64,000 bases of DNA from Micromonospora ureilytica (lineage in GTDB: Bacteria; Actinomycetota; Actinomycetes; Mycobacteriales; Micromonosporaceae). Positions within the stretch are counted from its first letter, which is position 1; every line of letters starts with the position of its first letter. Location of the stretch: assembly GCF_015751765.1 (NCBI RefSeq), contig NZ_JADOTX010000001.1, positions 5,828,001 to 5,892,000 of the forward strand, given 5' to 3'. The notes under the pieces are model-generated. The model saw only the letters and a list, made by a program, of their open reading frames with translations, searched no databases and was not told the origin of the DNA. The translations under genes were made by a program, and so were the position numbers. This document shows, in pieces, positions 38,628 to 57,246 of this stretch.

Positions 38628-39155
38628 CGACCGACCCGACCCGTTGGGCGGCCCGCCGGCCGGCATGAGCCCAACTCGCATCGGTACTCATCAAGCCGAC
38701 GTTCAGCGCGCTCTCAGCTGATGCGGTTACCGTGTAGCACGGTGGCCCGGAGGTTACTCCGCGCTCGACCCCCTCGATCGCGTGACCGGGCGCTCGGGTG
38801 GCCGAGCCGGACTCCCCGCCACGCCGGCTTCCACCCGGACTCGCCGTACGTTGGCTGCGGGGCTGGTGGGCCTGCCCACGGTGCGTGTCGTCGATGTCGA
38901 AGGCGCGCCGAGTGCGGGGGCTCGCAGGCTCACTGCTGGCGTACGCGGTCTTTTGATGGTGCACGACTGCGGGGCTCGCAAGCTCACTCCTCGCGTGCAC
39001 GGTGTACCGTCGAATGACCGCGGCGCGGCAGTTTTCGCGCCTCGGGGTCGAGGCCGGCCCGCACGGCGGCTCCGGCCGCCGCTCAGCGCGGCGACACCAT
39101 CAGACGGTCAGGACGTCGATCAGGAGGATGCGGGCGCTCCGCGCTCGACAACAGT
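38628..39155. other. 528-bp non-coding stretch between hpt and ftsH
   Basis: No convincing gene was found. It holds a -10-like TACCGT (38728-38733), two diverged copies of the GTGAGCGCGAGG-type element (38912-38934 and 38959-39000), and a Shine-Dalgarno-like AGGAGG at 39122-39127 that abuts an out-of-frame ATG. Several ORFs cross it on both strands but lack starts or conserved character. It probably contains the ftsH promoter and a long leader. Confidence 0.5.
38959..39000 (-). repeat. Dispersed GTG(A/C)xCGCGAGG element, diverged copy
   Basis: On the minus strand it begins GTGCACGCGAGGAGTGAGC and continues GCGAGCCCCGCAGTCG, matching the 12501-12618 units with a few changes. Both ends carry GTGCAC. 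A shorter degenerate copy lies at 38912-38934. Confidence 0.55.
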
Positions 39156-41174: not shown

Positions 41175-41875
41175 GCAACGACCCGACGGCCAGCTCCCCC
41201 CACCGGGAGCTGGCCGTCTCCGCGACCGAACCCGACGGCGACGACGAGCTGGACTACGTTGCCGCACGGCTGATCAGCGGCAGGCTGACCGGCCGCCCCG
41301 TCGAAGACGCGGTCGACCTCGGCCGGATCGAGAAGGCCGTCCGCGAGATCCTCATCGCGGTCGGCGAGGACCCGGACCGCGACGGACTCCAGCAGACCCC
41401 GGCCCGGGTCGCCCGCGCGTACGCCGAACTCTTCGCCGGCCTCCGGGTCGACCCGGCTCAGGTGCTCAGCACCACCTTCGAGGCCAACCACGAAGAGTTG
41501 GTCATCGTGCGGGACATCGACGTGATGAGCCTCTGCGAGCACCACCTGCTGCCCTTCCGGGGCAGCGCGCACATCGGCTACATCCCCGGCCCCGACGGGC
41601 GGATCACCGGCCTGTCCAAGCTGGCCCGACTCGTCGAGGTCTTCGCCCGTCGGCCCCAGGTGCAGGAGCGACTCACCTCGCAGGTCGCCGACCTGCTGAT
41701 GAGCAAACTCGCACCACGCGGCGTCGTCGTCGTGCTCGAATGCGAGCACATGTGCATGGCGATGCGCGGCATCCAGAAATCCGGTGCCAAGACCATCACA
41801 TCGGCCGTGCGCGGAATCCTGCAGTCGGACTCCAAGTCGCGGGCCGAGGCGATGGCGCTGATCATCCCCCGCTGA
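41171..41875 (+). CDS. folE: GTP cyclohydrolase I, apparent CTG start
   Basis: A 234-aa enzyme of the first folate/pterin step. Zinc ligands Cys122 and His125 (CEHHLLPF) and Cys195 (CMAMRG) are present, as are [16 protein letters not shown] and [10 protein letters not shown]. The frame runs open from just after a stop at 41111, and no ATG, GTG or TTG occurs before GTG 41462, which would delete 97 conserved residues. CTG 41171 overlaps the ftsH stop (CTGA), mimicking the ATGA/GTGA coupling used elsewhere, so it is the best start. Gene finders would truncate this gene. Confidence 0.92.
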
Positions 41876-42727: not shown

Positions 42728-45280
42728 TCAGCCGGCCACGTCGGCGAACGGCACCAGGACGGTGCCCCGCTCGTCCGGACCGTCCCAGAGCACCGCCCGG
42801 TCGGGGCGCGCCTGCCACTCGACCGGCCGACCGAAGACCGCTGTGAGCTGCGCAACCGGCACGTCCATCACGACCACCGCGGCCAGCTTGTCGACCTCGC
42901 CCGCCGGCTCGAACAACGAGGCGAACGGCGGCACCGCACGCCACCAGCCCAGCAGATGTCTCCCCGCCGGAGGCCCGTCCCGCAGAAGCGACCGCAGCCG
43001 TTCCACCGGCAGCTCCCGAGGACCCGGCCGGTCCAGCCCGAAGACCACCAGGTACGCGGGCAGTTCGTCGGCCGCGTCCGCGAACAACGTCGGCAGATCC
43101 ACCAACTCGGCCGAATGCCGGGCCGCCAACTCGGCCGTCAACGCCTCCGCGAGCGCCCGGGAGCCCGGGTCCGGTGCCGCCACCAGGAAGCGGGCGCTGC
43201 CCGGTGCGTGGTGAGCCGACGTGCTCCGCGCCGCCGTCGCCAACAACCCGCCCGCCGCGGTGCCCGAGCCCAGCACCGCGAGGTTGCGCCCCGCCGCCGG
43301 ACCCAACGGCACGGCCACCGTCGAACGGGCCACGTCCACCGCACGGCCCAGCAGAGCCGCCGGCCCGTGCGCCTGTCCCGCCAGGGCTGCCCGGTGACGC
43401 GGATCGTTGCCCAGCAGTGGCCGGGCGTAACCCGCGAAGACCACCGGCGGCACCGACCCGGCCGGACGCGCCGCCCACAGCTCGTGCCGCAACTTCTCCA
43501 CGACCTCCGGATGATCCTGCGGATCCGGATGACGGATCAACCGTTCGTGACCCCGGGTCGCACCCCGAGGGCCACCGAGCCCGCCGGCCGTGTTCACCAC
43601 CGCGCTGCCCACCGGCAGACCCGCCGCCGAGTCGTTCGTCGGCTCCAGCACCGGACTGCCGCCCGGCAGCGCCACCCGCACCGGAAACTGCCCGAGCACC
43701 GAATCCCGATGACCAGCATCCGCGCGCGTACTCAGCCCCAACTCGCCCGCGCCCGCCAAGACCAGGTGCACGCCGTACGCACGACCGGCCCGGGCCAGCC
43801 CGTCCAACTGGGCGGCGACCTCGCCGGCCAGCCGGTCCCGCTCGGCGAAGAGCAGCGGCACATTGTCCACCACACAGACGATCCGCGGCAGCGGCTGATG
43901 CTGACGCAGCTCCGCGAAACGTTGCCCCCCGGCCCGGGCACCCGCATCCGAGCGGCGCTGAACCTCGGCCGTCAACTCCTCCAGCAGATCCCGCACGTAC
44001 TCCCGGTCGGCGGCCATCGCCGCCGCGCGCACCTGCGGAACCCACGACCGGTCCCGCTCCGTCTGCAAAAACTCCACGAAGGACTCGCCGTCGCCGAGAT
44101 CCGCCAAGTAGAACGCCAGGTCATCCGGGCCGTACCGGGCGGCCAGGCCGAGCAACGCGGTGGTCAGGAACGCCGCACGACCCGCCGCGGACCGGCCACT
44201 CACCAGCCAGTGCGGGGTCAACTCGGTGAAACCCAGCGGCACCGCCCGGCCCCCGGCATCGCCGACGGTCGTGGTCAACCCATCGGCCGAGTCCGACTCC
44301 CACAGCCGCTCACCCGTCGGCGGCAACAGAGCACCCAACGCCAACCGGGAACCCGCCTCCACCTGCTCGGCGAGCCGCCGACAGACCGCGTCGACCAACT
44401 CGGCCGGCGGGTCCGACTCGACGAAGACCGGCGAGTTCAGACCGCCCGGCGGATCGGCCCCCGGCCCGGCGAACGACGCCCCAGGCGGGTCGCCGAGCAG
44501 CGCGTACGCATTACGCAGCGCCAGCGAAGTGGTGTGCGGCAGCGGTGCCCGGGCCGAGTACGGGCCGGCGGGAGGCCAACCCGCCACCACCAGGTGCAGC
44601 CCAGCGGCCGGCCCCTGCTCGGCCAACGCCTCGATGCGCGCCAGATCGGTCGGGCCGGTCGACTCCGGCAACGCGGCCACCACCAGCAACAACGTCCGAT
44701 CGTGCCGGCGTCGCCCACTCGCACCCGGCGTGACCCACTGCTCCGCCTCGGTCAACACCGCGCGCAGACCCGCCACATCCACCGCCGGCGGCGGCAGCAG
44801 GCCAGCATCCGCGAGCGCCCCGAACGGCGCCAACACCGCCCCGGTGGCATCCACCGCGCGAATCAACAGGGCACCCGCCGGTGCCGCACCCAACAACCGC
44901 AGGAGTACGGCCCGGAGCAACCCCGCCACCCGCGGCTCCCGCGCGTCCGCGTCCACACTGAGGTGACCGGTGCCGACAAGCGGCACCAACGCGGGGAAAC
45001 GAGCGTCATCCAACGGCGCCGCAGTACCGACCCGAACGAACGGCGGCGGACCATCACCCGCCGGCGAGTTCACAGTGAGCGAATCCAGTGCCGCGCCCGC
45101 CCAACCCGGAGCCAACACAGCCGCAGCCGTCCGGAGACGATCGGCCACCTCGTACTGACGGCGCTGATCGGCCGGAGCCGGCCGCGTCTCGTCCAGGATC
45201 CCGGCAGCTGCGGTCGCGACCGCCGTCGCCCGACGATGCAGGGCTGCGGCGCGGTTCGTGCGAGCCTTCGGACCGGCCAC
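42728..45280 (-). CDS. FtsK/EccC-like protein with degenerate P-loops
   Basis: About 850 residues from GTG 45280 (GAGGGGG 8 nt upstream). No TM helix is evident. The general order resembles FtsK/SpoIIIE or EccC-type motors: AELD-rich strands, PLGFTELTPHWLVSGRSAAGR at the first P-loop position (about residue 356), RIVCVVDNVPLLFAERD at the Walker B/sensor region, and VLGSGTAAGGLL at a second P-loop position (about 668). Both loops lack the invariant Gly-Lys-Ser/Thr, so ATP hydrolysis is unlikely. It may be a structural paralogue of an EccC or coupling-type ATPase. Its function is unknown; homology is inferred from pattern only. Confidence 0.75.
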   Translation of the reverse strand: MAGPKARTNRAAALHRRATAVATAAAGILDETRPAPADQRRQYEVADRLRTAAAVLAPGWAGAALDSLTVNSPAGDGPPPFVRVGTAAPLDDARFPALVPLVGTGHLSVDADAREPRVAGLLRAVLLRLLGAAPAGALLIRAVDATGAVLAPFGALADAGLLPPPAVDVAGLRAVLTEAEQWVTPGASGRRRHDRTLLLVVAALPESTGPTDLARIEALAEQGPAAGLHLVVAGWPPAGPYSARAPLPHTTSLALRNAYALLGDPPGASFAGPGADPPGGLNSPVFVESDPPAELVDAVCRRLAEQVEAGSRLALGALLPPTGERLWESDSADGLTTTVGDAGGRAVPLGFTELTPHWLVSGRSAAGRAAFLTTALLGLAARYGPDDLAFYLADLGDGESFVEFLQTERDRSWVPQVRAAAMAADREYVRDLLEELTAEVQRRSDAGARAGGQRFAELRQHQPLPRIVCVVDNVPLLFAERDRLAGEVAAQLDGLARAGRAYGVHLVLAGAGELGLSTRADAGHRDSVLGQFPVRVALPGGSPVLEPTNDSAAGLPVGSAVVNTAGGLGGPRGATRGHERLIRHPDPQDHPEVVEKLRHELWAARPAGSVPPVVFAGYARPLLGNDPRHRAALAGQAHGPAALLGRAVDVARSTVAVPLGPAAGRNLAVLGSGTAAGGLLATAARSTSAHHAPGSARFLVAAPDPGSRALAEALTAELAARHSAELVDLPTLFADAADELPAYLVVFGLDRPGPRELPVERLRSLLRDGPPAGRHLLGWWRAVPPFASLFEPAGEVDKLAAVVVMDVPVAQLTAVFGRPVEWQARPDRAVLWDGPDERGTVLVPFADVAG

Positions 45281-45440
45281 CGCGTCCACCCCCTCTACCC
45301 GAGGTTGGCAACCCCTCCCCAAGCAGAGACGGTATCCCAGCCGAGGGCGCACCTCCGGGAGGTGCCTCGGCGCTGCGCCGGTGATGTCGTGGATCTCACC
45401 GGTGGGGAGGGGCCCGTCACGATCCGCTGCATCTGAGGCA

Positions 45441-45475: not shown

Positions 45476-46042
45476 GTGGAATCAGTGCAGCCCCCCGCCG
45501 GTTCCCAGGTCTCCCGCGTACCGGCCCAGCGGACACCGTCCGAGCAGCTGCCGCCCGCCCCGGCGCCGCCGGCACCGCAGCCGCCACGCCGTCGAATGCG
45601 GACGGCGCTCACGGTCGTCGCCGGCGTGCTCGCCCTGCTCTGCCTAGGCGGAATCGCAACCGCCTACGTGTGGTACGACCGCGCCTCAACCCCCGACCGC
45701 AGCGCACCCGACGTAGTCGTGGACAACTATCTGCGCGCATTCCTCGTGGATCGCAACGACACAAGAGCGGACCTCTTCACCTGCGAGAGCGGGCCGCAGT
45801 TGGAGGCGTTGGATGCTCTGCGGGCCGATCTGCTCGCACGAGAACAGCGTTTCGGAGCCACGATAACTGTTAGTTGGGGGCCCTTGGCGGTGCAGAAGCA
45901 GGGTGATGTAGCTGCCGTTGAGGTCACGCTGATCATCTCGGCCCGAATCGACGGGATGAACCAGAGCGATCGGCAGCCCTGGCAATTCGAGACCCGGCTA
46001 GCCGACGGCTGGCAGGTGTGTGGCGGCGCGCGCGCTAGCTAA
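45476..46042 (+). CDS. Single-TM protein with extracytoplasmic NTF2/VirB8-like domain
   Basis: A 188-aa protein (185 if GTG 45485 is used). Its Pro-rich cytoplasmic N-terminus of about 40 residues precedes one TM helix (about 42-65). The outer domain of about 120 residues has the pattern of a cone-shaped NTF2-like fold (VVDNYLRAFLVDRND; VAAVEVTLIISARIDG), with two Cys. Such anchored NTF2-like proteins include VirB8/TcpC of conjugation systems and many unrelated actinobacterial proteins. It is convergent with the 46045 gene and only 2 bp from its stop, so a tie to the type IV-like cluster is positional only. Confidence 0.72.
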   Translation: MESVQPPAGSQVSRVPAQRTPSEQLPPAPAPPAPQPPRRRMRTALTVVAGVLALLCLGGIATAYVWYDRASTPDRSAPDVVVDNYLRAFLVDRNDTRADLFTCESGPQLEALDALRADLLAREQRFGATITVSWGPLAVQKQGDVAAVEVTLIISARIDGMNQSDRQPWQFETRLADGWQVCGGARAS

Positions 46043-46044
46043 CG

Positions 46045-46644
46045 TCACTCAATCCACAACAAATGGACCGGCACTTCCAACGTGGTGGGTGACTGGCCGC
46101 GCCAGGCCCACCGATACCACTCCACCTCGGGTGTGACTCGCACGCAGATGTCCCCTTCGGCGCCCGAGTAGGTCTCGGTTACCGCTCGAAGGTCACGGTG
46201 CTCCAGGCCGCCCTCGACGTGCACCACCCGCCGACCGGTGACCGCGTCGGCTTCGAAGACCGGTGTGGGGGTCCGGTGTGCCGGGCCGTCCAGCGAGACC
46301 AATCGGATACCCGTATCCCGTGTGCCGTCCACCCCCGGTCGACTGCCGACGGTCTCCACCCAGACCCGCTCCACCGGCACCAGTGGCGCGAAGACCTCGA
46401 CCTGGTCGGCTTCGGCCCGGTACCACTCGTGCTCGGGGATCACCGGCACGTAGGTTCGGGCGCTCTGCACCACCCGGTCGTCCGCACGCAGGTCGCCGCG
46501 CCACCCCAACCCCGGCAGGCCGACCAGCACCCGTCGCCCGCGTAGCTCGACCCGTTCGGTCGCGGGGACGATGGCCAGCGGTCTAGGTGGCTGCGGTGCC
46601 CAGTCGGGCTGGTCGGCGAACGGGTCGGGCAATGGTCCGGTCAT
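46045..46644 (-). CDS. Conserved-looking protein of unknown function, end of type IV-like cluster
   Basis: A 199-aa protein starting MTGPLPDPFADQPDW. No signal peptide or TM helix is visible. It is rich in Val, Arg, Trp and Tyr with a beta-strand-like pattern (VEVFAPLVPVERVWVETV; VTPEVEWYRWAWRG). It is the last gene of the minus-strand cluster, 13 bp after the transglycosylase/M23 gene. Family not recognised; likely co-transcribed with the secretion-like genes. Confidence 0.7.
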   Translation of the reverse strand: MTGPLPDPFADQPDWAPQPPRPLAIVPATERVELRGRRVLVGLPGLGWRGDLRADDRVVQSARTYVPVIPEHEWYRAEADQVEVFAPLVPVERVWVETVGSRPGVDGTRDTGIRLVSLDGPAHRTPTPVFEADAVTGRRVVHVEGGLEHRDLRAVTETYSGAEGDICVRVTPEVEWYRWAWRGQSPTTLEVPVHLLWIE

Positions 46645-46657
46645 ACCCGCGATGGCC

Positions 46658-47836
46658 TCACTCAGCGGCGCGCAGCGGGGCGCCCCGCTCGCGCATGAAC
46701 GGGACCGGGTTCACCGCGCCGGACGCGTTGCGGTTGTTACGCAGGTGCACCTCGAAATGCAGATGCGGACCCGAGGAGTTGCCACTGCTGCCGACCTTGC
46801 CGATCACCTGACCGGCCGTCACGACCTGATCCTTCTTGACGAAGGGTTGGACCACCATGTGGCAGTACCGGGTGATGTAGCCACCGGCGTGCAACAGGTC
46901 GACGAACCAGCCGCAGCCCCCCTTGCCGGGGAATCCGTCCACGTTGCAGTCTTGGCGGCCGCGGCGGTCCTCGTCGCAGGTCGAAACCAACACTCGACCG
47001 GTCGCTGCCGCGCGGATCTCGGTGCCCTTGGCCGCGCCGATGTCGACTCCGTTGTGGCTGGGCCGACTGGCGGTGCGAAAACCGGAGCCGACTCCGCCAG
47101 GGATCGGCGCGGTCCAGCCGGAGGCGGCGATCTGGCCGCGCTCGGCCGCATTGCACATCGCCTTGCCGTTGATCTCGACGGTGCGGGCCGCGCCGCCGGC
47201 CAACGCGTCCACGATCCGGCTGGCTACCTCTTCGTGTTTGGCGTACGCGTCCGGGTATGCGCTGACCTGCACCCGCTGCGCGACCACGGTCAGTGGTCGG
47301 CGTTGCCAGCCGTCCACCTTGACGAGCTTCTCGTAGAACTTGCGGGCCGCGTAAGCGGGGGTCAACCGCTGGGCGACCGTGCCCCACCCCGGCCGCTGCT
47401 GGAACAGGCCGAGCGAGTCGTGGTCCGCGCCAACGCCCTCGTGCGGCAGGGCCAGGGACTCGGGCACCCCGCTGTTCGCCAGGTTGCGCAGGGCGGACTC
47501 CTGCATCGCGGTGCCGAGGGCGATCACCCAACCTCGCGAGGGCACGCCCATGTCCTGGCCGACCTTGATGATGATCGCGGCATTGCGGACCTGGGTGTCG
47601 CCGTACTCGGCGAACCGCGGCAGCTTGCCCGCGACGTTCACCGCTCGGACCGGTCCGCACTCCATACCTGCCAGGGTGTCCCCGTTCTCGGCGTCGTCGC
47701 CGCCGAGCCCGGTGAGGAAGAACGCCGCGGTGCCGCCGGTGCAGCAGAGCAGGAGCAGCATCCCGGTGAGCACCGCGGCGACCACACCGAGCCGGAGAGG
47801 CCCGCGGCGGATTCCGGCGCTACCAATGTCGTTCAT
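46658..47836 (-). CDS. Transglycosylase-M23 peptidase fusion (VirB1/CwlT-like)
   Basis: A 392-aa protein from ATG 47836, overlapping the preceding stop (ATGA). One TM/signal anchor (about 17-40) is followed by a lysozyme-like SLT domain (about 85-200: ALGTAMQESALRNLA with catalytic Glu, SLGLFQQRPGWGT). A C-terminal M23 endopeptidase has HNGVDIGA (about 260) and GPHLHFEVH (about 357). This is the dual wall-cutting design used by conjugative systems of Gram-positive bacteria, although CwlT of Tn916 has NlpC/P60 instead of M23. It probably opens peptidoglycan for apparatus assembly. Confidence 0.9.
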   Translation of the reverse strand: MNDIGSAGIRRGPLRLGVVAAVLTGMLLLLCCTGGTAAFFLTGLGGDDAENGDTLAGMECGPVRAVNVAGKLPRFAEYGDTQVRNAAIIIKVGQDMGVPSRGWVIALGTAMQESALRNLANSGVPESLALPHEGVGADHDSLGLFQQRPGWGTVAQRLTPAYAARKFYEKLVKVDGWQRRPLTVVAQRVQVSAYPDAYAKHEEVASRIVDALAGGAARTVEINGKAMCNAAERGQIAASGWTAPIPGGVGSGFRTASRPSHNGVDIGAAKGTEIRAAATGRVLVSTCDEDRRGRQDCNVDGFPGKGGCGWFVDLLHAGGYITRYCHMVVQPFVKKDQVVTAGQVIGKVGSSGNSSGPHLHFEVHLRNNRNASGAVNPVPFMRERGAPLRAAE

Positions 47837-48390
47837 GGCCGCTCCCAGTCCAGAACGTCGACCAGCCAACCATCGTCGGAGGTGACCAGCTCCAGCCGGA
47901 GCCGGCCGGCATCAAGGGGGAGCAGCAACTCGACGAACGTCTCGGTCCGCTCTCGCATGGTGGGCGGACCGGCGACCTTCTCGGCGGGCACGCTCTCGGG
48001 CTCGGCGCCGATCAACTTCTCCCGCAGCGTTGGCGTGGAGAGCGGCCGTAGGCCAGCCTGCCACTCCTCGGTGGTCATCCCGGGGCGGCCCAGCCAGGCC
48101 TTGGTGAAGCGGTCGGCGGTCTGCTCGGGCGTGCGGGCGCCGGGCGACGTCACGGGTGACGGCGGAGCCGCACTGTTGAGCAGACCGTCGTCGCCGGCCG
48201 TCGGGTCCACGGTGATGATCGGCCCGTCGGGACGGTTGCTCAACCCCTCGGCTGAATCGACCGGGTTGGAGATCAGCCGGGCCGCCCCGAGCACGCCGAT
48301 GACCACCACCCCGATCAGCAGCGCAACGCCCAGCCGGGACCGCAGCGCCCGAGTGAAGAGGAACTCCAACGCCCGTCGCATGACCGTCAC
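47833..48390 (-). CDS. Single-TM VirB8/TcpC-like protein
   Basis: A 185-aa protein with a GTG at 48390 overlapping the preceding stop (GTGA); ATG 48381 is an alternative with GAGG 8 nt before. One TM helix (about 19-38) is followed by a Pro/Ser linker and an outer alpha/beta domain of about 110 residues (TPEQTADRFTKAWLG; MRERTETFVELLLPLD; DGWLVDVLDWE), consistent with the NTF2-like fold of VirB8/TcpC. The function as an apparatus bridge is inferred from its place between the VirB6-like protein and the wall hydrolase. Confidence 0.75.
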   Translation of the reverse strand: MTVMRRALEFLFTRALRSRLGVALLIGVVVIGVLGAARLISNPVDSAEGLSNRPDGPIITVDPTAGDDGLLNSAAPPSPVTSPGARTPEQTADRFTKAWLGRPGMTTEEWQAGLRPLSTPTLREKLIGAEPESVPAEKVAGPPTMRERTETFVELLLPLDAGRLRLELVTSDDGWLVDVLDWERP

Positions 48391-50342
48391 CTCGCCTCTG
48401 AGCGCACCCGTGGTCCGGTGCGATCCGGTGCCCGCTCGGTGGAGCCCGGACGGTAGACCACGAACGACGGGTTCTCAGCCGGTACATCCGGCTCGGTCCA
48501 GGTGGCTGGCTGTCGGCGTCGCGGCTGCGGAGCGACCGGGCGGCCGCGCCCCCCGCCCTTTTCCGTCGGCGCTTCGTCGGGCCGCTCTCGACCGTCCGGG
48601 CGCGCCGCGTCTGCTCGTCGGCCCTCGGCCGCAGCGGTCGGCACCGGGGTCGGGTCCTCTCGCCGCGCCTCCGGTCGAAGCCGGGTCTGCGCCGCTTCGG
48701 GTGATCGTCGACGTCCGCCCACCGGTTCGGCGGTGCCACCTGGCTCCGCCACGTCCAGCCGTGCGGCGGTCCGCATGTCGCGGAAGAACCGGCGGTGCCA
48801 GGACCCGGCCGAACTGACCGCTTCGCTGCTGTCCTTGCCGCCGAGTTGGGTGATCCGCCGGTACGGCCGCAGCAGCAGCCATCCGACCACCCCGCAGAGC
48901 CACACCAGCACCACCTGAAGCCAACCGGGAAGGGCGGGGGTACTCATGATCAGATCGACGGCGAACAGGTAGATGGCGGCCCCGGTGCCGAAGATGGCGA
49001 TGTTGAACACTGCGGCGACCACGGCGTTCGCCAGTCGCCGGAGGCCCGCGCTGGCAGGCCGGAGCAGACCGATGGTGCCGAGGATGGGCGCCGCGATCAC
49101 CGCCCACCGGAAGATCAGGAAGCCCAGCAGTACCAGCACCGACGCGGTCAGGTCAAACATCGCGAAGAGCACGGCCGCGAGCACGGCGATGAAGCCAGAG
49201 CCGATTCGGTCCATATCGCGGGTGCCCGTCAGGAACTCGTACGCCTCCGGGTCCTCGGCCTTGATCTGCTCCGCGACCGTCATCCACTGCTGCTGCTTGG
49301 CCTGGATCGTCGCTGGCCGGGTTGCCGGGTTGGCGCGCAGCTTTTCGGCTTCCTCCCAGGAAAACGCCTTAGCGTCGTACAGGGCAGGGCCATACTTGCG
49401 GGCGGTCTCGCTATCCGCCGAGCCGAGCACTCCGCGCAGCCAGTTGCGGTAGAGCATCGCCTCGGTGGCAGTGTCGCTGGCCCGAACAGCGGGCGGTCTT
49501 TTATCCACACAAGCGTCTGGGTTGGGAACGGCGCAACGATCCGCCGGTGTATCCCGAGCTGCGGGACCCACCGCATCGTGCACCACGCCGAGCGAGGTGA
49601 TCAGGGTGCCGTCGGCGATGTTCGCCGACTTGACCGGCCAGGCCGCCAGTGCGGTGACCGCCACCATCACCAGTAGCGCCCACCCAGCCGTCGTCATCGC
49701 ATTGCTCATGTCCGACTGGCGTGAGCGCCAGAGCAGATAGAGACCCACCACGCAGAGTGTGACGATCCCGAAGACGCTGAATACCTTTTGATAGACGGCT
49801 TTGGTGGCCTTCTCCACCAGTGGGTCGGCCCAATCCCACATGGAGCGAGGATCCCAGGCCCGCTCGCGCAGGGCGTTCGAGGCGCCCACGACCGCCGTGG
49901 CGATCATGAGCTCCCCGTTGGCGACGGTCGTGGTGAACTTGTAGTCCGGATGGAGAATGGTGGAGGCACAGCCACCCTCCACGTCATACGTGTTGAAGCT
50001 GTAACCGCCGTAGCCGTAGTCGCTGTAGATGCCCTTTGGCCCGGCCAGCTTCGACGAGTCCGGGCGAGAGGCGAACCAGCCGGCGAGGCCAGAATCCGGT
50101 GCGGACGGCACGGGCGGCTTCCGGCAGTCGATTTCGGCCTGACTGACCTGCTTCAGCTTCGCTACGCAGGCGCGGAAGTCAGCTTGCCATTCCGCGGTCG
50201 TGCAGAGGTCAGCGCGGGCCTGGGCGGCGGGCGGTGCGGCGGCTGCGGCCTCCGCGCCGATCAGCGGCCAGGTGAGGGAGGCCCCGGCCAGTACGCCAAG
50301 GGCGAGCAGGAACGACACAGTCCTTGCCCAGGCCCTAGCCAT
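48387..50342 (-). CDS. VirB6/TrbL-like polytopic membrane protein
   Basis: A 651-aa protein. A signal peptide (about 1-36) leads into an extracytoplasmic region of about 150 residues with paired cysteines. Six to seven TM helices follow (about 185-250 and 375-480), and a C-terminal cytoplasmic Arg/Pro-rich tail of about 150 residues ends the protein. This layout is typical of actinobacterial VirB6/TrbL/TcpH-like channel proteins. The start ATG lies 1 bp past the VirB4-like stop. Recognition is by topology and neighbours, not by a conserved motif. Confidence 0.78.
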   Translation of the reverse strand: MARAWARTVSFLLALGVLAGASLTWPLIGAEAAAAAPPAAQARADLCTTAEWQADFRACVAKLKQVSQAEIDCRKPPVPSAPDSGLAGWFASRPDSSKLAGPKGIYSDYGYGGYSFNTYDVEGGCASTILHPDYKFTTTVANGELMIATAVVGASNALRERAWDPRSMWDWADPLVEKATKAVYQKVFSVFGIVTLCVVGLYLLWRSRQSDMSNAMTTAGWALLVMVAVTALAAWPVKSANIADGTLITSLGVVHDAVGPAARDTPADRCAVPNPDACVDKRPPAVRASDTATEAMLYRNWLRGVLGSADSETARKYGPALYDAKAFSWEEAEKLRANPATRPATIQAKQQQWMTVAEQIKAEDPEAYEFLTGTRDMDRIGSGFIAVLAAVLFAMFDLTASVLVLLGFLIFRWAVIAAPILGTIGLLRPASAGLRRLANAVVAAVFNIAIFGTGAAIYLFAVDLIMSTPALPGWLQVVLVWLCGVVGWLLLRPYRRITQLGGKDSSEAVSSAGSWHRRFFRDMRTAARLDVAEPGGTAEPVGGRRRSPEAAQTRLRPEARREDPTPVPTAAAEGRRADAARPDGRERPDEAPTEKGGGRGRPVAPQPRRRQPATWTEPDVPAENPSFVVYRPGSTERAPDRTGPRVRSEAR

Positions 50343-50343
50343 G

Positions 50344-53300
50344 TCACGCCTCCAGATCCGGCAGGGGGATGCTCGGTAGGACTCCGGCCGCTGCGGCGAT
50401 AGCGGCGGGCGTCGTGTCGAGGTGGTCCAGCAGCCCTTCGACGTACGAGACGTCGACTCGGACCTTCTGCACCCGGCCGTCGACGTCGCGCATCACGAAC
50501 TCGCGGAAGCCGAGCCGGCTGGACGAGCTGGTGTCGGCGGCGGAGAGTGAGGCGAGCGTGCCCTCGTACCCGTCGTTTACCGGCACCCGCAGCAGTCGCA
50601 GAGCTTCGGAGGCGATCTCGGCGTCTTCGGCGATGCGGCCGACGAAGACTGTGGAGACGAGGTTCTGGACGTCGAGGCCGAGGATGTCTTTGGGGTTCTG
50701 CGAGGCGACCAGCGCGGCGAGGTTCCACTTGCGGGAGTCGCGGGCGAGTCGGACGAGGAAGGAGCGCCCGGACCGCCAGCCCTCCATGAAGTGCGCCTCG
50801 TCGAGGCCGACGAGCTTGCGGGATGACATCGAGCCGCCGTAGCAGCGCCGCACGGCGAGCCGGTGCGCGGTGTGCAGCATCGGCAGGGCCAGGGCCTCTT
50901 CGGCTGACCAGTACTCCCGTTCGATCTTGAGGTCGGGCAACCGTAGCCCGGCCATGGTGATCACGGTGAGTGCCGCGTCGGCACCGAGCAGCCCCTCCGG
51001 CGGTCGGCCGAAGAAAAGCATGGCCAGTGGCATCTCGGCGGTGTCCAGCAGGAGGTTGGCCAGTTCCTTGCCGGCGTCGTCGTCGAGCCGCCCGAGGCAG
51101 CTCACCACGTCGTCCAGGGTGGAGGTTTCCTCGGCGGGGACCTGGCGGACGGCGTGCCGGAAGAGGGTGGCGGTCGACGCCTCCCTGGCGACCTGCGGTG
51201 GGACGAGCATCATGCAGATGTCCTGGACGAGCATCCGCCGCTCGGCCCGGGCGTTGGAGACGGCGATCTCGAACTCCCGGTCACCGGCGGCGCCGCTGCC
51301 GAACTCGGAGCGCAGCGGCGTCGGGATGAGCGAGTAGGGCGCCAGGGTGCCGTGTTCCGAGCCGGTCAGGTTCAACACCCGGGAGTACGGCCGCAGTTCG
51401 GGCATCGCGCAGAGGCGGGCCAGCGGGCCGGACGGGTCGAGCAGGGTCACCTGGACACCTCGGCGGGCGGCCAGGTAGCCCAGGGCGCCGAGCAGTGTCG
51501 ACTTGCCGCCGCCGGGTTCTGCGACGAAGACCGCGAGCCCGGAGCGTTCCCGGACCTCCATGGGGAAGTGCAGGTCGAGGAAGACCGGGCGGCGGCAGGT
51601 GCCGGCGGTGCGGCCGATGAGGTCGCCTCGCCGGTCGCCCACGTTCGACGCGGCCTGGGGGAGCGCGGCGGCGAGCAGTGGCACCGGCATGCGTCGGACG
51701 TAGCCGGTGTTGGCGATCGGCTCGCCGGGGATGAACTCGCGGGCCAGCCAGTCCTGGTTCTTCGGGTGCTGCAGCGAGATGCGTAGCTCCCGGGAGTAGA
51801 GCTGGATGAGCCGGCGGGCCCGCTCCAGGCATTCCTCCCTGGTCCGGCCGCCGACGGCGATCCGGTGCCAGCCGTGGGCACGGGCCGAGTCGACAGGCAG
51901 ACCGGTGGTCATCTCGTCGCCGATCACCAGGGCGCGCTTGGCCAGTCGTTCCAGCTCTGGGGGCGCGTCGATGCCGTGCTCGGCGTAGTCGAGCTGTTGC
52001 GAGCGGATCATCCGCAGCCGGTGTTCGAGATTGCGGAAGGAGTCGCCGGAGCCGAGGATGTCGACGCGGGTGGAGATTTCCATCGGCCAGGGCAGCCGCT
52101 CGTGGAAGTGCAGCCAGGGCTCGTGCCGTTCGGGGATCTCCAGCGGCTCCATCCGACCGACGGCGAGCACGGCGACGTGCCGCTCCTCGCCGGTCATCCG
52201 GTTGACCAGCTTGACCGTCGAGCCGTACGGGGTGCGGTAGCGCTCGACCTGCTCGGTCATGGCGAGCAGGTCGCCGCGCTCCCAGCGCCCGTCGGTGACG
52301 GGGGAGAGGGTGCTCGGCGGCGACATGCACAGCGCCACCGAGCGGTAGAGCAGCCACTCCAGCTCCTGGGCGGTGACCCGCCGGCCGCGCATGCCGAAAG
52401 CGCCGAGCACCTCGTCGAACTGCTCCACGGTGCGGCCCAGCTTGCGGCGCTCCCCATCGGCGGTGCCCCGGCCGAAGGTGCGCAGCAGCCGCTCGGTGAG
52501 CGAGTCGCCGAGGGAACGGCGGGCGAAGGTGACACCCAGGTAGGTCTGCCCCTCGGCGTGGTTGACCGACATCAGGTGCCGTTGGGCGGCGACCAGGTGA
52601 TCGGCCCAGCCGGTGGTGCCGGGTACGTCGGGAAGTGGTGCCGAGGTGTGCGTGTCGATCGTGCGCGCCCACTCGTCGGCGGGGAACGGCCGGGTGGTGC
52701 GGCGCAGGTGCAGTCGGAAGCCGGCCAGGCCGGCGTACTGCTCGGAGATCGCCGACAGCAGCGCCTCGCGCTCGGCGTCCGGCCGGAACGCCCAGCGGAC
52801 CTCGGGCAGCCAGTACCAGGCCGTGACGGTGTTCGGCGTGAAGGTCAGGTGGCCGGCGATCTCGGTGATGGCCAACTCGACCGACGGATCCCGATCGCCG
52901 AATTTGATCTTCGGAGCGCGAACCCGGGTCGGCTTGATCGGTCGGTCCGGTCGGCTCGGCGTGCGCTGTCGGGGCGCGGCGACCTCTTTCCCGGTGGACG
53001 CGGTGCCGGTGTTCCTGGGCCGCTCCGGGTCGGTGGTCCGCCGCGCCGTGCGCTCCAGCGCTGGCCGATCGGTGGCTGCGATGCTGGCCGGCTGCTCGAC
53101 CGGTGGCGTGGGCCGGCCCACCGGAGCCGTCGGGGTGGCCGTGGGTCGGCTGCCCGGCAGGGCTCCGGCCGTCCGGCCGGCGGGGCCGGTGAACGCCGTC
53201 GGCGAGCCACTGCCGGTGGTCGCCGCCGCCGGGCCACGGCCGGTGGACGGGTCGGGCTCCTCCGGCAGACGCAGCATCGGCCGTCGATCGCCGGCCTGAT

Positions 53301-53787
53301 GCGGCACCCGGGACTCGCTGGCCGGGTGGCCACCGCCGTGCCGTGGCTCGACCGGCCGGCCACCGCTGCCGGGCTGGTCGGCGGGTGTCCACGGTGGCTC
53401 CAGCTCGGGAACCGCGCGGGCTGGTGCGGGGCTGGGGGTGGGTGGCGGCTGGTGCGGGATCGCCGGCTGTTCCCGGGTGCTCGGGCCGGCCGTGACGGCT
53501 CGTGCCGTGCCGGGTCGTCCCCCGCCGCCGAAGAGGTCCAGGAAGGGGGAGTCGATGTCGGCGTTCTCACCGGCCGACACGGCGGTGGGCTCGGCCGGTG
53601 GCGTCCGGCGGGAGACCGGCCGGGGCGCCTGGAACACGCCGACGGCACCGTGACCGGGCGACGTCACAAGCGCGGGGTCGAGGGCAACCTCGTCCTCGTC
53701 CTCGACGTAGTCGAATGAGTGCGCACGGTGACCGGCTGGCGCACCCGGGCGGCCGGCCGGGGAGCCCGGCGTGGAGGAGCGGCTCAT
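50344..53787 (-). CDS. VirB4/TraC-like secretion ATPase
   Basis: A 1147-aa protein. The first ~280 residues are Pro/Arg/Gly-rich and apparently disordered. The VirB4-type core then follows, with Walker A EPGGGKSTLLGAL (about residue 756) and Walker B KLVGLDEAHFM (about 990). The late NLVSTVFVGRIAED segment matches VirB4/TraC RecA folds. Unlike the FtsK-like protein at 42728, its P-loop is intact. ATG 53787 overlaps the stop of a 25-codon mini-ORF (ATGA). It should power apparatus assembly or substrate transfer at the inner membrane. Confidence 0.9.
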   Translation of the reverse strand: MSRSSTPGSPAGRPGAPAGHRAHSFDYVEDEDEVALDPALVTSPGHGAVGVFQAPRPVSRRTPPAEPTAVSAGENADIDSPFLDLFGGGGRPGTARAVTAGPSTREQPAIPHQPPPTPSPAPARAVPELEPPWTPADQPGSGGRPVEPRHGGGHPASESRVPHQAGDRRPMLRLPEEPDPSTGRGPAAATTGSGSPTAFTGPAGRTAGALPGSRPTATPTAPVGRPTPPVEQPASIAATDRPALERTARRTTDPERPRNTGTASTGKEVAAPRQRTPSRPDRPIKPTRVRAPKIKFGDRDPSVELAITEIAGHLTFTPNTVTAWYWLPEVRWAFRPDAEREALLSAISEQYAGLAGFRLHLRRTTRPFPADEWARTIDTHTSAPLPDVPGTTGWADHLVAAQRHLMSVNHAEGQTYLGVTFARRSLGDSLTERLLRTFGRGTADGERRKLGRTVEQFDEVLGAFGMRGRRVTAQELEWLLYRSVALCMSPPSTLSPVTDGRWERGDLLAMTEQVERYRTPYGSTVKLVNRMTGEERHVAVLAVGRMEPLEIPERHEPWLHFHERLPWPMEISTRVDILGSGDSFRNLEHRLRMIRSQQLDYAEHGIDAPPELERLAKRALVIGDEMTTGLPVDSARAHGWHRIAVGGRTREECLERARRLIQLYSRELRISLQHPKNQDWLAREFIPGEPIANTGYVRRMPVPLLAAALPQAASNVGDRRGDLIGRTAGTCRRPVFLDLHFPMEVRERSGLAVFVAEPGGGKSTLLGALGYLAARRGVQVTLLDPSGPLARLCAMPELRPYSRVLNLTGSEHGTLAPYSLIPTPLRSEFGSGAAGDREFEIAVSNARAERRMLVQDICMMLVPPQVAREASTATLFRHAVRQVPAEETSTLDDVVSCLGRLDDDAGKELANLLLDTAEMPLAMLFFGRPPEGLLGADAALTVITMAGLRLPDLKIEREYWSAEEALALPMLHTAHRLAVRRCYGGSMSSRKLVGLDEAHFMEGWRSGRSFLVRLARDSRKWNLAALVASQNPKDILGLDVQNLVSTVFVGRIAEDAEIASEALRLLRVPVNDGYEGTLASLSAADTSSSSRLGFREFVMRDVDGRVQKVRVDVSYVEGLLDHLDTTPAAIAAAAGVLPSIPLPDLEA

Positions 53788-53861
53788 GCGATCGCCTCGG
53801 TGACCGTCGGCAGACCCTTGCCCGCGTCCTGCGACGGACCGTTCGACGTACGTCCGGTCAT
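53784..53861 (-). other. 25-codon bridging mini-ORF
   Basis: ATG 53861 overlaps the stop of the VirB3-like gene (ATGA), and its own TGA overlaps the ATG of the VirB4-like gene (ATGA). The peptide begins MTGRTSNGPSQ. It exactly fills the 70-bp gap. It may be a coupling device or a real small protein; only the geometry supports it. Confidence 0.45.
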
Positions 53862-54220
53862 GCCAGCTCCTCCCGAATCCTGATCCGGCTGCCGACCAGA
53901 CGCGGATCGCGCTGCTCGACCGCCGGCTCCCGAGTGCGTCGCCAGTCGGTCAGCGCGGTGCGGATGACCACCCGCGCCGGCCGATCGGGGTCGACGTGCC
54001 GGAAGATGAACGACGTGGTCACGATGGCGAGCGCGATCTCCCAGGCTGGGAAGAGCTCGACCGTCAACGTGAACAGCCAGTGGATGAACATGTAGAGGGG
54101 GACCAGCAGCATGAAGAGCCCGTACTGGGCGTAGGGCAGGTGGACCGGAAGGGTGTAACCGGGCGGCCCGAGGTAGACCAGGCGGGCCCGGTAGATGTCG
54201 TCGTCGGTGCGCAGCCGCAT
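53858..54220 (-). CDS. VirB3/PrgI-like two-TM protein
   Basis: A 120-aa protein with N-terminal MRLRTDDDIYRARLVYLG and two adjacent hydrophobic helices (about 33-50 and 58-80). A cytoplasmic tail carries HVDPDRPARVV and an Arg-rich end. Size, topology and position directly before a VirB4-type ATPase match VirB3/PrgI-like subunits. The gene begins 13 bp after the VirB2-like stop. Confidence 0.75.
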   Translation of the reverse strand: MRLRTDDDIYRARLVYLGPPGYTLPVHLPYAQYGLFMLLVPLYMFIHWLFTLTVELFPAWEIALAIVTTSFIFRHVDPDRPARVVIRTALTDWRRTREPAVEQRDPRLVGSRIRIREELA

Positions 54221-54233
54221 CTGGTGAACGCGC

Positions 54234-54548
54234 CTATTCGAAGATCAGGTCGATCAGATAATCGCCGACGAAGAAGAGTGTTGCCGCGCCGGCGATGAAG
54301 GCGAGCCCGACGATGGCGATCGCGGAGCTGGTCAGCACCTTGGAGATCTCGCCCCGGCTGGCACGGCCGATGAAGATGACGCCCAGGACGGCGAGCAGGA
54401 TCGGCGCGATCTTGCTGGCGAAGAAGGTGACGACACTGTTGGTGTCGATCCCCTTCGGTGCCGGCTCCGCGAGTGGAGTCGACGCCAGGGTGGAGAGCGC
54501 GTGGGCGACGCCGGACGACGCCGTCTCCATGAGCTCGAAGGCGATCAC
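54234..54548 (-). CDS. VirB2/TrbC-like small membrane protein
   Basis: A 104-aa protein from GTG 54548, which follows GGGGAGG. A variable, probably extracytoplasmic N-terminal 45 residues precede two TM helices (about 47-66 and 76-98), the second reading IAIVGLAFIAGAATLFFVG. This topology fits VirB2/TrbC-type subunits, and it is the first gene of the minus-strand type IV-like cluster. No peptidase-processed signal is obvious. Confidence 0.7.
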   Translation of the reverse strand: MIAFELMETASSGVAHALSTLASTPLAEPAPKGIDTNSVVTFFASKIAPILLAVLGVIFIGRASRGEISKVLTSSAIAIVGLAFIAGAATLFFVGDYLIDLIFE

Positions 54549-56690: not shown

Positions 56691-56713
56691 CCGAGCGGAA
56701 CCGGCCGGCATGA
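56674..56713 (+). other. Leaderless -10 and 8-codon bridging mini-ORF
   Basis: TAGAGT (56674-56679) lies 7 nt before ATG 56687. The ORF from there reads 8 codons to TGA 56711-56713. Its ATG overlaps the folK stop (ATGA), and its stop overlaps the ATG of the DUF3180 gene (ATGA). It may serve as a leaderless landing site that couples into the DUF3180 gene. Confidence 0.4.
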
Positions 56714-57246
56714 CGCAGGCGAAGCCCTCACCCCGCGGGTCGGGCCCGGACGGGTCCCGGATGGGCCCCACCCGGATCTCGACCCTTGTCGTGGCCGGCC
56801 TGGGTGCGGCGGCGGTGGCCTGGCTGCTGATCAGCTCCCTCTACTACAGCGGCATTCCCCGGCTGCCCTGGCTGCCGGTGGTGACGCTGGCCGGCCTCGC
56901 CGTGCTGGAGGCGTACGCCGCGATCAACACGCGGGGCCGGATCGAGCGCAAGCCGGGCCGGGAGCCGGTCAACCCGCTGGTGGTTGCCCGGTTCGTGGTG
57001 CTGGCCAAGGCGTCGGCACTCGCCGCGGCGATCTTCGCGGGCTTCTACGCGGGGCTCAGCGGCTGGCTCTTCGTGGAGACCACCCGCGCAGCCCTGGACG
57101 ATCGACCGGCCGCTGTTGGTGGCCTGCTCGCCTCGCTGGCCCTGGTCGGCGCCGCGCTCTGGCTGGAGCGCTCCTGCCGGGTGCCGGAACGCCCGGACGA
57201 CGAGCGCGAGCAGGACCCATGGGAGAGCCACCCCGGCCAGCGCTGA
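56710..57246 (+). CDS. DUF3180-family membrane protein
   Basis: A 178-aa protein with four TM helices (about 24-43, 52-72, 95-116, 130-150) and a conserved interhelical RGRIERKPGREPVNPLVVARF segment. DUF3180 genes follow folK across actinobacteria. Function unknown. ATG 56710 is coupled to the upstream mini-ORF. Confidence 0.88.
   Translation: MTQAKPSPRGSGPDGSRMGPTRISTLVVAGLGAAAVAWLLISSLYYSGIPRLPWLPVVTLAGLAVLEAYAAINTRGRIERKPGREPVNPLVVARFVVLAKASALAAAIFAGFYAGLSGWLFVETTRAALDDRPAAVGGLLASLALVGAALWLERSCRVPERPDDEREQDPWESHPGQR

What the first reader, a model, noticed from the sequence alone, without database searches (positions are those of the whole stretch)
45476..54548. Type IV secretion-like apparatus without relaxase, inside the folate gene neighbourhood
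In order on the minus strand: VirB2-like (104 aa), VirB3-like (120 aa), VirB4-like ATPase with intact P-loop, VirB6-like protein, VirB8-like protein, transglycosylase-M23 fusion, and an unknown 199-aa protein. A second NTF2-like anchored protein and an FtsK-like protein flank it. There is no relaxase, no integrase, no att-like repeat and no clear VirD4/TraG coupling protein. Seen: topology, motifs and order. Known: these parts are conjugation components (MPF-FATA style). Inferred: a chromosomal, possibly protein-secreting machine domesticated from a conjugation system.
Basis: partly seen in the sequence, partly recalled or inferred. Interest (0 to 1): 0.78.

Follow-up and report, generated by a model that had tools for sequence, protein, structure and literature searches.

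The report
Fixed chromosomal type IV secretion-like machine
A set of genes resembling the machine that bacteria use to pass DNA to each other has become a lasting, strongly conserved part of the chromosome in a family of filament-forming bacteria, apparently without some of the parts needed for DNA transfer, which suggests that it now does another and still unknown job.

Summary
On the minus strand at 46045-54548, between folE and folP, lies a compact run: VirB2-like, VirB3-like, VirB4, VirB6-like, VirB8-like, M23 hydrolase and a 199-aa protein. VirB4 is secure (Pfam AAA_10). The VirB8-like model's best PDB matches are the VirB8 domain of PrgL. VirB6 is moderately supported; VirB3 and VirB2 rest mainly on position, topology and plasmid relatives.

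It is not a passing element. VirB4 was found in 118 of 121 Micromonosporaceae genomes (37 of 38 genera). Its core differs less between species than the folate enzyme FolE, and the genes are under purifying selection. Two relaxase families tested in the whole genome are absent; no integrase was found among the neighbouring ORFs scanned. Divergent chromosomal counterparts occur in 80 of 80 Pseudonocardiaceae genomes and in Streptosporangiaceae. The FtsK-like neighbour has a degenerate ATPase site here, though not in all relatives.

Best reading: a domesticated MPF-FATA-type envelope machine. Its job is unproven; Streptomyces cmdABCDEF (sporulation) is the best functional lead; protein secretion remains possible.

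The parts
54234..54548 (-). VirB2-like small protein, 104 aa, two hydrophobic helices (GTG start)
   Evidence: Position and topology; no library hit; own HMM finds weak counterparts in the same position in plasmid L137 (E 9e-6) and Pseudonocardiaceae L115 (about 1e-4). Identity as a pilin is inference.
53858..54220 (-). VirB3-like membrane protein, 120 aa
   Evidence: No library hit; own HMM finds the counterpart directly before VirB4 in four plasmids (E 1.4e-6 to 1.1e-12) and in Pseudonocardiaceae; comparison with a TcpE protein not significant (probability 2.9%).
50344..53787 (-). VirB4-type ATPase, 1147 aa; about 284 N-terminal residues variable, core highly conserved
   Evidence: Pfam AAA_10 6.9e-24; TcpF 3.9e-19, below that model's cut-off; Walker motifs; mean p-distance core 0.051, N-terminal part 0.516.
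48387..50342 (-). VirB6-like polytopic membrane protein, 651 aa
   Evidence: About seven hydrophobic segments; profile match E 1.8e-8 to a VirB6-like Streptomyces protein that itself has only a sub-cut-off TrbL match; plasmid counterparts E 6.6e-25 to 1.4e-56.
47833..48390 (-). VirB8-like anchored protein with NTF2-type domain, 185 aa
46658..47869 (-). Anchored cell-wall hydrolase, M23 at the C-terminus, 403 aa (VirB1-like role); start codon uncertain, overlaps the VirB8-like ORF
   Evidence: Pfam Peptidase_M23 5.8e-24; N-terminal half without hit.
46045..46644 (-). Accessory protein of 199 aa, unknown fold, last gene of the run
   Evidence: 80 of 80 relatives' loci; relatives near the module on a Streptomyces plasmid (E 2.1e-18) and directly after the hydrolase in genome G087 (E 3.8e-6); model pLDDT 85.5, no assignable fold.
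45476..46042 (+). Anchored NTF2-type protein of 188 aa, convergent neighbour; membership of the system uncertain
   Evidence: Rv0361_Cterm 1.2e-5, sub-threshold; found in 80 of 80 loci but fast-evolving (dN/dS 0.18-0.45).
42728..45352 (-). FtsK/EccC-like protein with degenerate Walker motifs; neighbour, membership uncertain
   Evidence: FtsK_SpoIIIE 1.4e-12; motif loss; three family members in this genome and members in three genomes without VirB4.

Best explanation
The locus is a chromosomally fixed core of an MPF-FATA-type (Gram-positive conjugation-type) type IV secretion apparatus that is inherited vertically and has stopped being a transmissible element. Shown here: anatomy, family-wide presence, purifying selection, absence of two relaxase families from the genome and of an integrase among the neighbouring ORFs scanned, degenerate state of the FtsK-like neighbour. 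Inferred mechanism: the VirB4 ATPase drives assembly of, or transport through, a membrane platform of the VirB3- and VirB6-like proteins; the VirB8-like protein forms a ring in the cell-wall zone; the M23 enzyme opens peptidoglycan for the complex; the small two-helix protein is a pilin-like or channel subunit; the 199-aa protein is an accessory. Most likely role (inference, the weakest step): an endogenous envelope task of hyphal growth or sporulation, by analogy with Streptomyces cmdABCDEF, rather than conjugation.
For: 118 of 121 family genomes, 37 of 38 genera; same gene order in most of 80 loci; VirB4 core less divergent than FolE, distances track FolE (r 0.84) and FolB (r 0.87) in 51 loci; dN/dS 0.00-0.29 for the seven genes; VirB4, VirB8 and M23 identities; no PF03432 or PF08751 in the genome, one AAA_10 VirB4; parallel chromosomal lineages in Pseudonocardiaceae (80 of 80) and Streptosporangiaceae. 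For the role: cmd mutants' defects (PMC2782261) and a remote profile match of the VirB4 profile to the ATPase of SLP2, the plasmid to which the cmd genes were compared (E 3.7e-6, probability 87%; control with SLP2's FtsK 0.032, 1.6%).
Against: The module sits at other chromosomal places in several genera, and some genomes have a second, more divergent VirB4 (G483 65%, G473 64%; about 30% partial matches in G413 and G455), so mobility in the past or repeated acquisition is possible. Four genomes lack or have broken the module (G412, G438, G465, G477), so it is dispensable. Only two relaxase families were searched genome-wide; CONJscan was not available. VirB2 and VirB3 identities are not confirmed by profiles. 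HMMs of the module do not find the SLP2 genes and the VirB6 comparison is negative, so the link to Cmd is only at superfamily level. No functional data for this locus.
Confidence: 0.6

Rival explanations
1. Dedicated protein secretion system: the machine exports proteins to the surface or into neighbouring cells.
For: T4SS core without relaxase of the families tested; precedent named in a review: the 89K T4SS of Streptococcus suis secretes SspA-1 (PMC12857230 section 22).
Against: No candidate substrate was found beside the locus; the precedent has VirD4, here no intact coupling ATPase lies at the locus. Not otherwise tested.
Confidence: 0.25
2. Resident DNA-transfer machine: it still moves chromosomal or plasmid DNA between hyphae, with a relaxase-independent, FtsK-type motor.
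For: Plasmids with the module (L134-L136) are typed without relaxase but carry an FtsK or T4CP gene; some relatives keep an intact FtsK-like neighbour (9 of the 72 relatives' ORFs) and this genome has an intact paralogue elsewhere.
Against: The local FtsK-like motor is degenerate in Micromonospora and Salinispora, is a different subfamily from the plasmid FtsK proteins and its family occurs in genomes without VirB4. In S. coelicolor the cmd genes did not replace the SLP2 transfer genes (PMC2782261).
Confidence: 0.12
3. Ordinary integrative conjugative element or its remnant.
For: Homologues on plasmids (276 records, all under 60% identity); position differs between genera.
Against: 118 of 121 family genomes have VirB4; conserved flanks in most of 80 loci; no relaxase of two families, no integrase among ORFs scanned, no convincing flanking repeat among the 20 families shown of at least 60; purifying selection.
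Confidence: 0.03

Closest known systems
Transfer modules of linear actinobacterial plasmids: Streptomyces sp. NEAU-S7GS2 plasmid, Nonomuraea sp. NBC_00507 plasmid, Streptomyces pSM17C, Rhodococcus jostii pRHL3
   Same: Small gene - VirB3-like - VirB4 - VirB6-like - (VirB8-like) - wall hydrolase in the same order; detectable by the module's own HMMs.
   Different: Plasmid-borne, long branches in the VirB4 tree, VirB4 31-37% identical, intact FtsK/T4CP-type gene beside the module in all four, NlpC/P60 instead of M23 hydrolase in three.
T4SS of Patescibacteria (PMC12102498, abstract and passages read)
   Same: MPF-FATA kinship, clade-wide, chromosomal, mostly without relaxase.
   Different: Those have VirB2-like pilins, in Southlakia an array of six, and a VirD4-like component (PMC12857230 section 22); here one VirB2-like gene, no intact coupling ATPase at the locus, free-living hosts (recalled).
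cmdABCDEF of Streptomyces coelicolor (PMC2782261; abstract, parts 1-2 of 4 and Discussion read)
   Same: Chromosomal cluster related by its authors to plasmid transfer genes and VirB4-like proteins, membrane proteins plus one membrane-located ATPase.
   Different: Relation to the window locus only remote: ATPase of SLP2 E 3.7e-6 to the VirB4 profile, VirB6 comparison negative, HMMs negative. The S. coelicolor proteins themselves were not compared.
virB4 gene MiLup08_42651 of Micromonospora lupini (PMC4182475 passages)
   Same: Very probably the same gene: M. lupini Lupac 08 is L010, with the whole run.
   Different: Reported there as one gene surrounded by proteins of unknown function.
T4SS of the 89K island of Streptococcus suis (PMC12857230 section 22)
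   Same: Gram-positive VirB1, 3, 4, 6, 8 core.
   Different: Has VirD4, lies on a pathogenicity island, and has a known secreted protein. Not compared by sequence here.

Membership tests
MPF-FATA-type T4SS core | VirB4-type ATPase | tested here: met
   AAA_10 6.9e-24, TcpF 3.9e-19 below cut-off, Walker motifs.
MPF-FATA-type T4SS core | VirB8-like protein with NTF2-type fold | tested here: met
MPF-FATA-type T4SS core | VirB6-like polytopic protein | tested here: inconclusive
   Sub-cut-off NF046089 (E 0.04); profile match E 1.8e-8 to a VirB6-like protein.
MPF-FATA-type T4SS core | VirB3-like protein (TcpE/PrgI type) | tested here: inconclusive
   No library hit; TcpE comparison not significant; plasmid counterparts in the same position.
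MPF-FATA-type T4SS core | VirB1-like wall hydrolase | tested here: met
   Peptidase_M23 5.8e-24.
MPF-FATA-type T4SS core | VirD4/TraG-type coupling ATPase at the locus | tested here: not met
   Only the FtsK-like ORF with degenerate Walker motifs. Genome-wide, PF12696 finds an FtsK-like paralogue; PF02534 was not searched genome-wide.
MPF-FATA-type T4SS core | Recognition by CONJscan/MacSyFinder | not testable with these tools
   Profiles not available.
Integrative conjugative element | Relaxase | tested here: not met
   No PF03432 or PF08751 in the complete genome; other relaxase families were not searched genome-wide.
Integrative conjugative element | Integrase and attachment sites | tested here: not met
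   No integrase among the 20 ORFs scanned between 30.5 and 64 kb or the 10; no convincing repeats among those shown; no tRNA in the window.
Integrative conjugative element | Sporadic distribution | tested here: not met
   118 of 121 genomes.
Patescibacteria T4SS | Absence of relaxase with clade-wide chromosomal VirB4 | tested here: met
   (two relaxase families).
Patescibacteria T4SS | VirB2-like pilin array and VirD4-like component | tested here: not met
   One VirB2-like gene; no intact coupling ATPase at the locus. Feature as described in PMC12857230 section 22.
Cmd cluster of Streptomyces | Homologous ATPase and membrane proteins | tested here: inconclusive
   Only the SLP2 relatives were compared: ATPase E 3.7e-6, VirB6 negative, HMMs negative.
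Cmd cluster of Streptomyces | Sporulation and chromosome-segregation phenotype | not testable with these tools
   Needs a mutant.

The most novel reading that the evidence does not exclude
Whole families of filament-forming actinobacteria carry a conjugation-derived type IV secretion core as a fixed chromosomal organ, domesticated once or several times, which works without relaxase or dedicated coupling ATPase in hyphal development or in delivery of molecules between cells: core equipment of free-living Gram-positive bacteria rather than a tool of mobile elements.
Probability: 0.4. Interest if true: 0.9.

Novelty: new variant of a known kind. Interest (0 to 1): 0.74.

Why it matters
[quoted passage not shown] A 2011 survey found few T4SS in actinobacteria (PMC3158045, passages). 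A module with VirB4 in 118 of 121 Micromonosporaceae and 80 of 80 Pseudonocardiaceae genomes, both rich in antibiotic producers (recalled), makes the question testable in organisms that can be cultured. In nine paper searches I found no description of this locus as a conserved system, only the lone virB4 in M. lupini; the library holds open-licence papers only.

Tried and rejected
FtsK-like neighbour as the coupling protein: attractive because the plasmids keep an FtsK or T4CP gene beside the module, but it is only generically similar to the plasmid proteins, lacks catalytic motifs in Micromonospora and Salinispora, has three family members in this genome and members in three genomes where VirB4 was not found, and was not found in loci L020, L025 and L065 although 10 kb of flank is held there. 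Against this rejection: nine relatives' copies are intact and it is under purifying selection. Left open.

Streptomyces locus L133 as the cmd cluster: could not be shown. Its VirB4 has the P-loop at about residue 542, whereas the SLP2 ATPase has it at about 58 and the cmd paper mutated K90 and K404 of CmdB.

Stop flags (TGA) in the genome search as signs of decay: dropped, since folP shows the same flags. Convincing loss is limited to G412, G438 and G465 (no VirB4 found; no module gene upstream of folP in the fetched stretch) and G477 (VirB4 fragment, VirB2 and VirB3 not found).

Independent domestications: the tree places Pseudonocardiaceae with plasmids, but a Micromonosporaceae-plus-Pseudonocardiaceae clade is not rejected (AU p 0.367, quick tree). 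Left open.

Motor-gene comparison by P-loop pattern is rough: the pattern misses the VirB4 of this family, and L114 has an unexamined ParA-like ORF; it is used only as a pointer.

In scripts the label 'folK' stands for window 56710-57246, which Pfam shows to be DUF3180, and 'folE?' for a shortened folE ORF; counts are unaffected.
Full report
WHERE AND WHAT. The window lies in a one-contig genome of 7,096,270 bases; its nearest VirB4 relatives are Micromonospora species. Between folE (ORF 41243-41875, GTP_cyclohydroI) and folP (Pterin_bind) lie, on the minus strand, a VirB2-like gene (54234-54548), VirB3-like (53858-54220), VirB4 (50344-53787), VirB6-like (48387-50342), VirB8-like (47833-48390), an M23 hydrolase (46658-47869) and a 199-aa gene (46045-46644), then a plus-strand gene (45476-46042) and an FtsK-like gene (42728-45352). 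From VirB4 to VirB8-like the genes touch or overlap, as in an operon (inference).

CONSERVATION. A scan of genome contigs gave 256 relatives of VirB4, of which the best 80 were kept; all 80 titles are of Micromonosporaceae genera. The run is flanked by folP on one side and folE/ftsH on the other wherever the contig reaches, with exceptions: L042 and L070 lack VirB2, VirB3 and folP although 10 kb of flank is held, L020, L025 and L065 lack the FtsK-like gene, and L047 has only residues 1-180 of VirB4. In an even draw of 121 family genomes, 118 have VirB4 (37 of 38 genera), 73-98% identical to the window's core for nearly full-length first copies; G412, G438 and G465 have none, G477 a fragment; G473 and G483 have a second copy at 64-65%, and G413 and G455 extra partial matches at about 30%. 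In G412, G438 and G465 no module gene lies upstream of folP in the stretch fetched, and G477 keeps VirB6, VirB8 and hydrolase with a VirB4 fragment. In G402 and G477 VirB4 and folP lie far apart; in G400, G485, G396 and G447 no folP was found in the 14-20 kb around VirB4; in none of these six stretches was an FtsK-like gene found. In G416 and G401 the module is beside folP.

SELECTION AND INHERITANCE. dN/dS of the window against five Micromonospora loci: VirB4 0.12-0.14, VirB6 0.08-0.13, VirB3 0.00-0.05, VirB2 0.00-0.08, VirB8 0.12-0.29, hydrolase 0.12-0.24, 199-aa 0.02-0.10, FtsK-like 0.11-0.12, plus-strand gene 0.18-0.45; folP 0.16-0.23. In 51 loci (1275 pairs) VirB4 distances follow FolE (r 0.84) and FolB (r 0.87); the mean p-distance is 0.051 for the VirB4 core, 0.056 for VirB3, 0.075 for the FolE stretch used and 0.158 for FolB. 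This is the pattern of a resident gene.

NOT A CONJUGATIVE ELEMENT AS IT STANDS. The genome has one AAA_10 VirB4 and no PF03432 or PF08751 relaxase; other relaxase families were not searched. Its one TraG-D_C hit is an FtsK-like paralogue with intact motifs. Among 20 ORFs scanned between 30.5 and 64 kb there is no integrase, and there is no tRNA in the window. Lack of relaxase is a weak argument, however: of the four plasmids opened with this module three are typed non-mobilizable and one mobilizable with MOBP. SLP2, whose transfer cluster is of another make, is also typed non-mobilizable, although its genes are cited as required for transfer (PMC2782261). The motor gene separates them better, but not cleanly: all four plasmids, and SLP2, have an FtsK/T4CP-type ATPase with intact P-loop near the module. 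At the window locus the FtsK-like neighbour has R for the Walker A lysine and DN for DE. Among the relatives' 72 FtsK-like ORFs, nine from Asanoa, Phytohabitans, Plantactinospora and Winogradskya have K and DE; 59 (56 Micromonospora, two Salinispora, one unclassified) have R; one Micromonospora has V with DE; in three Walker A could not be read. The gene is still under purifying selection. Its family occurs three times in this genome and in the three genomes where no VirB4 was found, so its link to the module is unproven.

BEYOND THE FAMILY. In an even draw of 393 genomes of the class, 58 have a VirB4 match (24 of 122 genera); the 20 listed genomes without a match are all of family f2, and 315 more were not listed. 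Most of the 58 belong to family f17, about 31% identical. The L121 protein of f17 is identical to one of Microbispora, and the 120 listed relatives (87-100% identical) that bear names are of Streptosporangiaceae genera or Actinomadura. In L118, L120 and L124 the f17 locus lies near a gene that looks like ychF (recognised by eye, recalled); TcpC, TcpE and NlpC/P60-type domains were found in one or more of these loci. The L114 protein of family f3, about 40% identical, is that of Prauserella isguenensis, and the named relatives listed are nearly all Pseudonocardiaceae genera, one being labelled Streptomyces. In that family 80 of 80 genomes (44 of 44 genera) have it, with the order B2-B3-B4-B6-B8-M23 in the two loci opened. 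Trees of 42 and then 37 VirB4 rows show three tight chromosomal groups and long plasmid branches. Whether Micromonosporaceae and Pseudonocardiaceae share one domestication is open (AU p 0.367).

FUNCTION. No tool here measures function. The best lead is cmdABCDEF of S. coelicolor (PMC2782261; abstract, parts 1 and 2 of 4 and Discussion read): a chromosomal cluster which its authors relate to SLP2 transfer genes and to VirB4-like proteins, which did not replace the SLP2 genes in transfer, and whose loss causes aberrant branching, poor septation and 6-8% anucleate spores; single mutants differ, and loss of cmdA had no visible effect on sporulation. A later mutant screen lists cmdBCDEF as affecting actinorhodin (PMC6585502, passages). 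My VirB4 profile matches the SLP2 ATPase remotely (E 3.7e-6, probability 87%; control with SLP2's FtsK 0.032, 1.6%; positive control with the f17 VirB4 1.8e-67), but the module's HMMs and the VirB6 comparison are negative. So the window locus may work like Cmd; it is not shown to be Cmd. Protein secretion and relaxase-independent DNA transfer remain possible.

KNOWN OR NEW. Mostly relaxase-less, clade-wide T4SSs are known in Patescibacteria (PMC12102498, abstract and passages). For actinobacteria, PMC3158045 (passages) reports few T4SS, and PMC3218068 (passages) 17 putative T4SS-type ICEs. M. lupini's lone virB4 was noted in print (PMC4182475, passages). Nine searches found no paper on this family-wide locus; subscription papers are not held, so one may exist. 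I rate it a new variant of a known kind.

Noticed in passing
window 30562-31965 (+); neighbouring ORF 26477-30460 (-): EccD of a type VII (ESX-type) secretion system (Pfam EccD 1.9e-82 and YukD); the long ORF beside it may be EccC (not tested). Two secretion-type loci lie about 15 kb apart.
   Followed up: no
L160 455-4744 (-); also G572 and G544: In three Pseudonocardiaceae genomes the VirB4 match is split by extra residues in one open frame. In G569 the insert sits inside the P-loop, between the lysine and the serine, and looks by eye like an intein (not tested with a profile).
   Followed up: partly
A5 alignment; window 42728-45352 (-): The FtsK-like protein has lost Walker A and B residues in Micromonospora and Salinispora but keeps them in Asanoa, Phytohabitans, Plantactinospora and Winogradskya, yet dN/dS stays near 0.11: a candidate pseudo-ATPase.
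   Followed up: partly
window 52936-53787 (-): The N-terminal 284 residues of VirB4 are proline-rich and hypervariable (mean p-distance 0.516) in front of an almost invariant core (0.051).
   Followed up: no
L118 6239-8770 and L124 4160-8593: In Streptosporangiaceae the TcpE domain is at the start of an 843- or 1477-aa ORF that also has a ParA/MinD-type ATPase domain; whether one protein or a mechanical ORF fusion was not checked.
   Followed up: no
L047 (Micromonospora musae), about 10001-10606: Only residues 1-180 of VirB4 are found, with VirB6 and the rest following: a deletion, a masked stretch or an assembly fault.
   Followed up: no
window 38917-39003: Two 33-nt copies, 85% alike, 54 bases apart, just upstream of ftsH (family D20).
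   Followed up: no
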